A DNA stretch of 64,000 nt from a virus, in the IMG/VR virus record IMGVR_UViG_3300035670_000101, positions 29,395-93,394 of that record. One strand, written 5' to 3'. Each line of letters begins with the position of its first letter. Positions within the stretch are counted from its first letter, which is position 1. Both the position numbers and the translations under genes were made by a program. The notes under the pieces are model-generated. The model did no database searches and was not told the origin of the DNA. It saw only the letters and a program-made list of their open reading frames with translations. Of the stretch, positions 24,685 through 48,357 are shown one piece after another.

Positions 24685-25609
24685 GGTAGAGTGCAGAAAA
24701 AGGGCAAAAAAAATTCAAATTTTCTTATATAATATAAATTATAGTAGAGAAATATTTTTAGTGTACCTTGCTTTTAAGGTTTTATAATCACTAACAGGAG
24801 TTATAAGGTTCTTGAAAGAGTCTTCTTATTATTTGTACATAATATCTCTTAAAATATGTAACTATATTGTAACTAGAAGAATAGTGATATAAAAATCCTC
24901 CTATTATATAGCAATAGAAATAATAAGAGTATGTTATTGTTATAGTTAGTAATAGTATTAATAAAGACAATAATGGAATATGTTATTATATTAAAGATAT
25001 GAATAAAGAGTTAAGATATTAGCACAAATAGTGATATAAGAATATTATTAGAATTAGTGTAACATTAGCGGTTGTTAGGGATTATTATAGAGGTTTACAA
25101 CAACCATGTAAGTATTACCAGTAGTGCTTCTTTAAGGGTTTAACAATAATCTTTATAACCCTTGTAGGGGTGTTCTTAGGGTTCTCTTATGGTATAGAGT
25201 AAACTTTATAAAACAACTATGGTGTTAAACATGACACTAGAATACATTACTACTATGTTACAAATTCTCTGTAACATAACCTTATAAAATTCACTAACAG
25301 GGAACACCCTACCTTTTATCTAAAAGAACCTTAAAGGGAGAGGGATTGTTTGCAGCAGACAAAATCCCTAAAACTATAGTATTATTGTGCTGTATTGTTG
25401 TTGGTGCTCAACGTCCGTAGGACAGTATTCTAAACAGTGGTATGCACAGTATAGTCTTCTTAAGAGTAATTCTTTAAAGTGTTCCCTTTAGTGAATCTCC
25501 AACTAAAGCCTACATTCGTAGTCTTTGTTGTATATTGTGTTGTAACATTCAAACTTCATTGCATTCGTTTTCATTAACAACATACACCAGAATTAATTGT
25601 TGTTTAGTG
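24685..25609. other. 925-bp AT-rich non-coding divergent region
   Basis: No coding frame is supported on either strand. Left part: very AT-rich with near-repeats (AATAGTGATATAA at 24890 and 25027) and an ACCTT/AAGGT hairpin at 24765-24780. Middle: AAGGGTT/AACCCTT (25134-25163) and TGTTAC/GTAACA hairpins (25256-25275). Right part: conserved element copy A (25332-25579). It could hold a replication origin, non-coding RNA genes or both. Confidence 0.6.
25332..25579 (+). ncRNA. conserved structured non-coding element, copy A
   Basis: Collinear with copy B at 45297-45547. Shared parts are a TAAAGGG entry, hairpin P1 (AGGGATT 25341-25347 with AATCCCT 25363-25369, extended by GTTTGC/GCAGAC), AAAACTA after it, hairpin P2 GTCC/GGAC (25413-25423), hairpin P3 CTAC/GTAG (25510-25521), then TAACATTCA (25543) to TTCATTAACA (25579). 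P1-inner and P3 keep pairing although their sequences differ from copy B. The strand is given by analogy with the downstream gene; transcription is not shown. Confidence 0.5.
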
Positions 25610-25638
25610 TTGACTTCTTTTTGTTGCTAAAGTATATT
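25610..25638 (+). promoter_or_regulatory. sigma70-type promoter
   Basis: TTGACT (25610-25615), 17-bp spacer, TATATT (25633-25638), with an ATTTAATATTAAAT palindrome at 25641-25654 overlapping the probable start region. It drives the small membrane protein gene at 25671. Confidence 0.75.
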
Positions 25639-25670: not shown

Positions 25671-25856
25671 GTGATAACAGATGTTGTATTAACTATAGCT
25701 GTAGTAGTATTTGTTTGGTGCTTAAGTTTTATTAGTGTTATGTTTCTCCTACTATCAGATGCAGATTATAAAACTAAGAATAGTTATAGTACTATGGTGC
25801 TAGGTGTTATAGTGTTGGTGTTGTTTCTCTACTGTGGTTATATGTTGTTTGTTTAA
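25671..25856 (+). CDS. small two-helix membrane protein
   Basis: 61 aa from GTG 25671 with AAGGATC upstream. Two hydrophobic helices (residues 3-29 and 41-60) flank a short polar loop (SDADYKTKNSYS). Same size, topology and genomic setting as the protein at 45645, though sequence identity is not obvious. Function unknown. Confidence 0.6.
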   Translation: MITDVVLTIAVVVFVWCLSFISVMFLLLSDADYKTKNSYSTMVLGVIVLVLFLYCGYMLFV

Positions 25857-25866
25857 GGAGTTTAAA

Positions 25867-26463
25867 ATGGGTGGTAAGTGGAATCGTTGGGTAACCCCAA
25901 CTCGTGATGTTGTAGATGGTAAGAATGTTGTTCGTAAAGGGTATACTCAATGGGCTGGTATGTTCAATAGGGCTAAAGGTCAGAAGTATTATGAAGAAGT
26001 AGGTATTAGTGAGATGTTTAAATCTTATGATTTATGGCATGACTGGGCTGTAGATCAGAAAGGTTTCTTAAATAAGGAAACTAATGGTAAGATATGGTCT
26101 ATTGATAAAGATATTATTGGTGATAGTACAATATACTCAGAAGATGTTTGTGTGTTTGTTCCAGCAATTATTAATTGTCTTTTTATTAAGAGTAAGAATA
26201 AATCTAAAGTTGGTAGACTTGGTGTTAGAAAGGTTGAAAGAGTATCCGTTCCTGATAAGTATGAAGCGAGGTTGGCAGCGTATTGTACTCACATTGGAAC
26301 ATTTGACACAGTAGATGAGGCATATAAAGCTTACTTGTCTGCTAGGTTGATGTACTCCAAAGAGTTATTTAATCTATATGGTGACACAGTAGATGATAGG
26401 GTATGGGATTCTTTGTTTAAGTCGTGTGAATATTCTGATATTCCAGATATTCTCAATATTTAG
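25867..26463 (+). CDS. AP2-type putative homing/mobile protein (paralogue 4)
   Basis: 198 aa from ATG 25867 behind AAGGAG; a longer frame from 25834 overlaps the upstream gene without an SD. Core: YTQWAGMFNRA, WHDWAVDQKGF, SIDKDIIGDSTIYSEDVC, FVPAIIN; the C-terminal AP2-like domain includes YEARLAAYCTHIGTFDTVDEAYKAY (quoted in part). It lacks the usual basic N-terminal domain of paralogue 3. A terminator follows. Homing activity is inferred. Confidence 0.72.
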   Translation: MGGKWNRWVTPTRDVVDGKNVVRKGYTQWAGMFNRAKGQKYYEEVGISEMFKSYDLWHDWAVDQKGFLNKETNGKIWSIDKDIIGDSTIYSEDVCVFVPAIINCLFIKSKNKSKVGRLGVRKVERVSVPDKYEARLAAYCTHIGTFDTVDEAYKAYLSARLMYSKELFNLYGDTVDDRVWDSLFKSCEYSDIPDILNI

Positions 26464-26468
26464 AACAA

Positions 26469-26505
26469 AGTGCCTCAACTTTCGAAGCTTAGGGGGCTAT
26501 TTTAT
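26469..26505 (+). terminator. probable intrinsic terminator
   Basis: GCCTC (26472-26476) pairs with GGGGC (26493-26497), with CTT/AAG pairing inside, followed by an AT-rich TATTTTAT tract. Confidence 0.55.
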
Positions 26506-26521
26506 ATTTAGGAGATTAAGA

Positions 26522-26740
26522 TTGATTACTACGATATTAGCTACGGCGTTTGTAATTGTTGGCAGTGGTTTGATGATTGGTGCTACAATACTGTATGCTT
26601 ATATCGTTATCACTCGGAAAGATTTTAACAGTTGGGACTGTAGAGATGTTATTAAACTTATTTTAATTACTTTAATATCTGTTGTTTTTGTTGCTACTGT
26701 TTCAGTGGTGGTAGAATACTTTAAGCACTTAATATCTTAA
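26522..26740 (+). CDS. small two-helix membrane protein
   Basis: 72 aa from TTG 26522 with AGGAGATTAAGA upstream; the long in-frame extension from 26393 overlaps the AP2-type gene and is not credible. Helices span residues 3-29 and 45-65, separated by a charged loop. Third small membrane protein of this cluster. Confidence 0.6.
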   Translation: MITTILATAFVIVGSGLMIGATILYAYIVITRKDFNSWDCRDVIKLILITLISVVFVATVSVVVEYFKHLIS

Positions 26741-27242
26741 TGGTATTAGGTGTTTTCTTTTGTCTGCTATACGTGTAGGTTGTTAGAAAAAATTTTGAAT
26801 TTGGGAATTTTTGAAAAATATTTTTAGTGGGTGAAACCCCAGATTCCGAGGAGTATAGGGTGGGTTAAAATGACTACCCAGTAGAAACTCACCAGTCATT
26901 TCATTTTGGTCAGAGCTTACCGTTTATCCCCTATTTTTACTAAAAAATAACAAAAATCACTGTTTTACCGCTTGTTTTTATACCCGTTTCTGTGCTATTC
27001 ACACGCACGTTCCTTTATACGACATTCAAAACGTACTGATTAATGCAATAACACTGCATTGGTAAGCTATAACACTTCTTTGGATGTGATTAATGATAAA
27101 AGACAGGTAGAAATTCCCCTAAATAAACTTATTTAGTAAGCTATTCATAAAATATTTAATAAAATAAACAATTAAATAACCTTTTATTTCATGTATTTAC
27201 CAGTATTTTTAGTATTATTTTAAAATTAATTGAATAAAGTTC
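26741..27242. other. non-coding region, about 500 bp
   Basis: No supported ORF. It contains a perfect 8-bp inverted repeat AAATGACT (26868-26875)/AGTCATTT (26894-26901), a GGGT/ACCC hairpin near 26830, AATGC/GCATT around 27043-27060, and an AT-rich run upstream of the 27243 promoter. Could be an RNA gene, replication signal or terminator cluster. Confidence 0.45.
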
Positions 27243-27270
27243 TTGCAATGATTCTTAAATTTGCTAATAT
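27243..27270 (+). promoter_or_regulatory. sigma70-type promoter with TGC before -10
   Basis: TTGCAA (27243-27248), 16-bp spacer ending TTGC, TAATAT (27265-27270), 40 bp before ATG 27311. Confidence 0.6.
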
Positions 27271-27310
27271 GAACTCATACCGAAGCAAGTAGCTTAAAAG
27301 GAGAAACATT

Positions 27311-45137: not shown

Positions 45138-45296
45138 CATTTATAAAATTTCTAGATAAAAGTTGTTTTTTACTTTTAATATTCAACGAGTTACAACACT
45201 ATCTCTAGAGTGTAGATGGGTGTACCGTTAGATAATATGCACAATAAAACTATCCTTACGGATGGTATCCTGTGCAGATAACACTAACAACAATAC

Positions 45297-45547
45297 TAAA
45301 GGGAAAAGGGATTTGTTTGATTGCTATAACAATCCCTAAAACTAAAGGGATAACTAAAAGTAATTCCACAGAGGATACAGTTAGTATTATTCAACACTGT
45401 AATGTCCTATCGGACAATTTATTGTTGGGTGCTAACTAACAGTGATAACTGTGGGAATACTCCTATAGTGCATTATCGGTAGATTTCATCTACGCTCTAA
45501 TGATTGCTATAACATTCACACATCACTATCGTTTGTGTTCATTAACA
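45297..45547 (+). ncRNA. conserved structured non-coding element, copy B
   Basis: Second copy of the element at 25332. P1 AGGGATT (45307-45313)/AATCCCT (45331-45337) extended by GTT/AAC; P2 GTCC/GGAC (45404-45415); P3 GTAGAT/ATCTAC (45479-45493); tail from TAACATTCA (45510) to TTCATTAACA (45547). Offsets from P1 to P3 and to the tail agree with copy A within 3 nt (172 versus 169; 203 versus 202). Only P2 is displaced. Transcription and function are not shown. Confidence 0.5.
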
Positions 45548-45559
45548 GCAATGTAAATA

Positions 45560-45613: not shown

Positions 45614-45644
45614 TAAGACAATCATTTAACTTAAGGAGATGTTA

Positions 45645-45827
45645 ATGTTTTTATATTTTTATTTATTTGTTGATGTGCTACTGCTGTTAACAGGTTTTGT
45701 TCTGTTTGTATTGCTAAAGAACAATGTTGTTATTGTAGATTTAACATCAGCTATTATTATTGGTGTTGTGTATGCTATATTCTTTGTGTTTTGTTTAGTG
45801 CAAACATATATGGAATATACTAAGTAG
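45645..45827 (+). CDS. small two-helix membrane protein
   Basis: 60 aa from ATG 45645, 6 nt after AAGGAG; an ATG at 45639 abuts the SD. Two long hydrophobic helices (residues 2-25 and 31-54). Counterpart in size, topology and setting to the protein at 25671. Confidence 0.62.
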   Translation: MFLYFYLFVDVLLLLTGFVLFVLLKNNVVIVDLTSAIIIGVVYAIFFVFCLVQTYMEYTK

Positions 45828-48283: not shown

Positions 48284-48357
48284 GCTTGTATAGTTAAATG
48301 GTATAACATCGGTTTTGTAATCCGAAGTTTGAGGTTCGACTCCTTGTATAAGCACCA
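48284..48357 (+). tRNA. tRNA-Thr (UGU anticodon)
   Basis: A 74-nt cloverleaf: acceptor GCTTGTA/TATAAGC (one G-U), D arm GTTA/TAAC, anticodon loop TTTGTAA with TGT at 34-36, T arm TGAGG/CCTTG with loop TTCGACT, discriminator A and encoded CCA. The first anticodon-stem closing pair is T-T. It reads ACA and probably offsets the AT-rich codon use. Confidence 0.9.

What the first reader, a model, noticed from the sequence alone, without database searches (positions are those of the whole stretch)
25332..25579. Duplicated structured non-coding element, copy A (partner at 45297-45547)
Two non-coding stretches 20 kb apart share a collinear set of elements: TAAAGGG entry, hairpin P1 (AGGGATT/AATCCCT) followed by AAAACTA, hairpin P2 (GTCC/GGAC), hairpin P3, then a conserved tail from TAACATTCA to TTCATTAACA. 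Distances from P1 agree: P3 at 169 versus 172, tail at 202 versus 203, end at 238 versus 240. Inner P1 (GTTTGC/GCAGAC in A; GTT/AAC in B) and P3 (CTAC/GTAG in A; GTAGAT/ATCTAC in B) keep pairing with different bases, which suggests selection on RNA or DNA structure. I know no described phage RNA or origin of this shape.
Basis: partly seen in the sequence, partly recalled or inferred. Interest (0 to 1): 0.8.

Follow-up and report, generated by a model that had tools for sequence, protein, structure and literature searches.

The report
Twin folded elements in phage control regions
A bacterial virus carries two diverged copies of a roughly 250-base folded non-coding element, one at each of the only two places where its genes point away from each other, and because base pairs changed in step between copies the folding appears to matter, though what it does is unknown.

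Summary
The two copies align far better than shuffled DNA, and profiles that include the copies find no further full copy in the genome. A third copy (B') and a shortened fourth (A') occur in one close relative, at the matching loci. The three full copies share a fold of 62 pairs; 17 of these changed on both sides with pairing kept (8 expected, p 0.005). The anatomy is larger than described: a closing stem P0 around P1 and a long P2, then P3, then a terminal hairpin P4.

The copies sit at the only two divergent gene junctions of the 93-kb record, each just upstream of a promoter-like site and a small hydrophobic (probably two-helix) membrane-protein gene. Relative A' lacks P0-P2 but keeps P3-P4, so the element is modular. 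No Rfam match; none in 50,697 phage records, nor in 17 further phage records searched with structure models.

Which strand acts, or whether it acts as RNA or DNA, could not be settled. I favour a structured RNA made from the early control regions (about 0.45) over a hairpin-bearing replication origin or promoter element (about 0.3).

The parts
25332..25490 (+). Copy A, closing stem P0 (TAAAGGGA 25332-25339 with TCCCTTTA 25483-25490) around P1 and P2; this module is absent from the relative's A' copy
25341..25376 (+). Copy A, P1 hairpin AGGGAT-TGTTTG-CAG-CAGACA-AA-ATCCCT followed by AAAACTA
25383..25451 (+). Copy A, P2 long irregular hairpin (TATTGTGC/GCACAGTA outer stem, GTCC 25413-25416 / GGAC 25420-25423 tip)
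25500..25530 (+). Copy A, P3 hairpin CAAC-AAAG-CTAC / GTAG-CTTT-GTTG
   Evidence: about 98% identical in A'
25536..25584 (+). Copy A, P4 terminal hairpin with invariant internal loop TAACATTC / TTCATTAACA
25610..25638 (+). sigma70-like promoter TTGACT-17-TATATT, conserved in A', just downstream of P4
25671..25856 (+). 61-aa hydrophobic ORF with two TM-like segments, first gene right of copy A; clear homologue behind A'
24850..25045 (.). AT-rich block upstream of copy A, about 90% identical in the relative, with repeated AATAGTGATATAA(A/G)AAT
45294..45470 (+). Copy B, closing stem P0 (TACTAAAGG 45294-45302 with CCTATAGTG 45462-45470) around P1 and P2
45307..45344 (+). Copy B, P1 hairpin AGGGATT...AATCCCT followed by AAAACTA
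45364..45457 (+). Copy B, P2 long hairpin: TTCCACAG/CTGTGGGAA, GTTAG/CTAAC, CAACA/TGTTG, GTCC/GGAC
45471..45502 (+). Copy B, P3 hairpin CATTA..GTAGAT / ATCTAC..TAATG
45503..45552 (+). Copy B, P4 terminal hairpin with the same invariant internal loop
45639..45827 (+). 62-aa hydrophobic ORF, first gene right of copy B; 95% identical protein in the relative

Best explanation
The element is a structured non-coding RNA, or transcribed leader, made rightward from each of the phage's two divergent control regions. It folds into two modules: P0 enclosing P1 and P2, and P3 plus P4 with an invariant internal loop. Shown: two diverged copies, shared fold, location, modular loss, conservation of P4. Inferred: that it is transcribed and folds as RNA. 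Most likely mechanism (inferred): it works on early gene expression, either in cis on the transcribing polymerase (as the paired put RNAs of HK022 do) or in trans, binding a phage or host protein through the P4 loop. One full copy seems to suffice, because the relative keeps P0-P2 only at locus B'.
For: Two copies, one at each of the only two divergent junctions. Three-way consensus fold, z -5.9 on + and p 0.005 for two-sided changes. + strand more stable than shuffles in all three full copies (z -2.7, -4.4, -2.5), - strand clearly so only in B. P4 loop invariant in all four copies while flanking stems differ and still pair. P4, and P3-P4 of A, more conserved than neighbouring non-coding DNA. 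Each copy heads the same kind of gene, a small hydrophobic membrane protein. No open frame common to A and B spans it.
Against: No transcript data. No clear conserved promoter directly upstream of the element; the one conserved promoter in A lies downstream of P4, so it would not transcribe the element. No intrinsic terminator after P4. P3-P4 is better paired on the minus strand (z -6.8 vs -3.7). Only two related genomes carry it, so the covariation rests on three full sequences.
Confidence: 0.45

Rival explanations
1. A DNA element: paired replication origins or promoter-control regions in which hairpins form in single-stranded or supercoiled DNA, with protein binding at P4 just upstream of the rightward promoter.
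For: Sits in the two divergent junctions; copy A lies beside a helicase gene and a gene with a weak replication-initiation match. AT-rich repeat block beside copy A. No strand preference in strand-neutral counts on the consensus. P4 lies about 25-40 bp upstream of a promoter-like site in the copies read. The positionally equivalent region of B9-type Acinetobacter phages carries 10-15 TAGTGT repeats, iteron-like.
Against: The repeat is weak in window A (7 TAGTG in 1055 nt) and not enriched in B. Third-position skew follows gene direction, with no break at A or B. Long helices with compensatory change are not needed for binding to double-stranded DNA.
Confidence: 0.3
2. A minus-strand RNA: long 5' leader or small RNA of the two leftward operons, ending near P1.
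For: P3-P4 consensus better on the minus strand (z -6.8) and B single fold z -6.3. B' to B pair retention p 0.002-0.005 on minus only. Minus-strand P1 is followed by a T run in B and B' (sequence).
Against: A and B' minus folds are near chance (z -1.2, -1.0). P0-P2 favours +. The element lies about 700-960 nt from the left gene in A, and that gene differs between relatives (helicase vs RNA ligase).
Confidence: 0.15
3. Ordinary shared ancestry of a duplicated regulatory segment, with pairing largely incidental in AT-rich DNA.
For: Small sample; single-copy MFE pairs mostly not preserved between B and B'.
Against: Three-way consensus beats column shuffles on both strands, and slid partners give 1-5 two-sided pairs against 17.
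Confidence: 0.1

Closest known systems
HK022 putL/putR antitermination RNAs (PMC9378689)
   Same: Two related structured elements in one phage, one for each of two divergent early transcription units.
   Different: put is about 70 nt, two stem-loops, located downstream of the early promoter; here about 250 nt, five helical elements, and the only conserved promoter found lies downstream of the element.
Long non-coding region before the early genes of Acinetobacter phages vB_AbaM_B9, TaPaz, Ab5, MD-2021a
   Same: Same genome position, about 0.9-1.2 kb non-coding, next to a small gene (two-helix hydrophobic in TaPaz), left neighbour exchangeable.
   Different: No P0-P4 element found by structure models; carries TAGTGT arrays instead.
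SPP1 oriL/oriR type paired phage origins (from memory, a lead only)
   Same: Two related origin copies far apart in one phage genome.
   Different: Defined there by protein-binding boxes, which were not identified here; not tested.
G4-type hairpin single-strand origins (from memory, a lead only)
   Same: Several adjacent DNA hairpins.
   Different: Found in small ssDNA phages; not tested here.

Membership tests
Any Rfam 15 family | Score at or above the family's gathering threshold | tested here: not met
   (only the tRNA at 48284 passes; the rest are chance level)
put-type antitermination RNA | Two related copies, one in each divergent early unit | tested here: met
   (that the units are early is inferred from position)
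put-type antitermination RNA | About 70 nt with two stem-loops | tested here: not met
   about 250 nt, P0-P4
put-type antitermination RNA | Located downstream of the early promoter so that it is in the nascent RNA | tested here: inconclusive
   clear promoter only downstream of P4
put-type antitermination RNA | Acts through the RNA polymerase beta' zinc-binding domain | not testable with these tools
   needs transcription assays
Phage replication origin | Initiator-binding repeats within the element | tested here: inconclusive
   weak repeats, no array in B
Phage replication origin | Strand-composition break at the locus independent of gene direction | tested here: not met
   a weak test, as skew follows gene direction
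Phage replication origin | Start of DNA synthesis at the locus | not testable with these tools
   needs read depth or 2D gels

The most novel reading that the evidence does not exclude
A new class of phage structured RNA present as two diverged copies, one per divergent control region, that acts on early transcription or on a host factor through a modular fold with an invariant P4 internal loop.
Probability: 0.3. Interest if true: 0.65.

Novelty: new variant of a known kind. Interest (0 to 1): 0.45.

Why it matters
Few phages are known to place the same folded element at every divergent control point. If it is a working RNA, it would be a further case of RNA-based control of phage early genes, in a group related to Acinetobacter phages. 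If it is DNA, it points at paired origins or control sites. Either way two short loci, with a natural part-deletion (A'), make it easy to test.

Tried and rejected
blastn of both elements against 50,697 phage records gave none. Structure models R1 and R2 over 19 records found no further convincing copy. A 25-bit hit in the relative at G001:72516-72644 (a P1-like hairpin followed by AAAACTA) is no better than the antisense self-match at 25 bits, so it is not counted.

Coding: small frames exist (for example an 18-aa frame through P4 of B), but a 1-nt length difference in P4 between A and B breaks the frame and there is no Shine-Dalgarno (sequence).

An early impression that the relative is only 60% similar was wrong: shared DNA of the structural genes is about 86-90% identical, so the high identity of P4 is notable but not extreme.

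Skew as origin evidence: uninformative.

Full report
Setting. The window is part of a 93,394-base IMG/VR virus record. Terminase, portal and head protease match tailed phages, the closest named relatives being phages such as Acinetobacter vB_AbaM_B9, vB_AciJM_313 and TaPaz, with terminase about 50% identical. In the whole record genes run in long same-direction blocks with only two divergent junctions, window 24615/25671 and 45084/45639 (apart from one short opposite frame that is probably spurious). These hold copy A and copy B.

Observation. All coordinates and distances in the finding are right. A and B align with score 61 against 30.0 +/- 4.2 for 1000 shuffles, with none reaching 61. Profiles built from the copies find only these two in the window genome.

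A relative. One IMG/VR contig of 97,814 bases (G001) has both loci: B' (G001:50508-50796) and A' (G001:71957-72064). Shared DNA of the two phages is 86-90% identical in the structural genes. At locus A the upstream AT-rich block is about 90% and P3-P4 about 98% identical; the promoter-like site TTGACT-17-TATATT is conserved; but the whole P0-P1-P2 module is missing from A'. Since B, B' and A have it, loss in A' is simplest. At locus B the P0-P3 part has diverged to roughly 75-80%, while P4 and its flanks are nearly identical. The left neighbour of A differs: a DNA helicase in the window, a T4 Rnl2-like RNA ligase in the relative, so the region does not belong to one left gene.

Anatomy. P0 closes a branched module with P1 and a long P2; P3 follows; P4 ends the element. 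The stems around it differ but still pair: TGTTGT/ACAACA and AAAC/GTTT in A; ATTGCT/AGCAAT and ACAC/GTGT in B.

Structure tests. Sequence-only alignment of A, B, B': consensus energy -27.6, null -9.3, z -5.9 (+); -24.5, z -4.2 (-). P0-P2 alone: z -7.1 (+), -4.9 (-). P3-P4 with A': z -3.7 (+), -6.8 (-). The + consensus has 62 pairs, 17 with two-sided Watson-Crick changes; shuffled alignments give 39 pairs and 7.9 (p 0.005 for the two-sided changes); slid partners give 1-5. Single-sequence folding against shuffles: + strand z -2.7 (A), -4.4 (B), -2.5 (B'); - strand -1.2, -6.3, -1.0. Whole MFE structures of B or B' taken alone are not preserved in the other beyond chance, except B' to B on minus. 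So the shared helices are supported, not every predicted pair. The column shuffles do not keep dinucleotides or relatedness, and three sequences are few.

Strand. Plus is favoured by P0-P2 and by the single folds, minus by P3-P4. Strand-neutral counts of G.U against A.C give 14 vs 7 per sequence and 2 vs 2 on the consensus. I call the strand unresolved, with a lean to plus.

Surroundings. To the right of each copy comes a 61-62 aa hydrophobic ORF with TM-like segments; A' is followed by such ORFs too, one clearly homologous to that of A. B9-type phages have a positionally equivalent 0.9-1.2 kb non-coding region with exchangeable left gene, 10-15 directional TAGTGT repeats, but no P0-P4 element by structure model.

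Reading. The base-pair changes argue for a folded nucleic acid. The location argues for a role in early control. A structured RNA is the simplest fit; its weak points are the missing upstream promoter and the lack of transcript data. A hairpin-bearing DNA control region or origin is the main rival. Functionally nearest is HK022 putL/putR (PMC9378689), but size, fold and promoter position differ, so I do not file it there. No Rfam family fits.

Noticed in passing
L058:2752-3991, L057:1338-2246, L061:3095-3988, L056:10285-11381: B9-type Acinetobacter phages carry 11-15 copies of TAGTGT, almost all on one strand, in the non-coding region before the early genes (expected 1.5-1.9): iteron-like, perhaps an origin.
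   Followed up: partly
window 25254-25278: Perfect palindrome TATGTTACA-aattctc-TGTAACATA, its core conserved in the relative, just upstream of copy A: possibly an operator.
   Followed up: no
window 25834-26463: HNH endonuclease gene directly behind the 61-aa ORF of copy A; not seen at this place in the relative, which has small hydrophobic ORFs instead.
   Followed up: no
L052:13116-13244 (G001:72516-72644): P1-like GC-rich hairpin followed by AAAACTA about 450 nt upstream of A' in the relative (25 bits), possibly a degenerate or relocated P0-P2 module.
   Followed up: partly
window 26464-27310: 847-nt gap without genes of 60 aa or more; two stretches (26709-26928, 27108-27261) are 78-81% identical in the relative.
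   Followed up: no
L058:2752-3100 (minus strand) and L056:11180-11225: In B9-type phages the leader before the small early gene has a hairpin (CTAAGAC/GTCTTAG in B9, CTGATC/GATCAG in MD-2021a) followed by CTTGATACGAGCA, with pairing kept between phages.
   Followed up: no
window 45639-45827: The 62-aa hydrophobic ORF is about 96% identical at DNA level in the relative although the promoter region before it is clearly less similar; perhaps recently exchanged.
   Followed up: no
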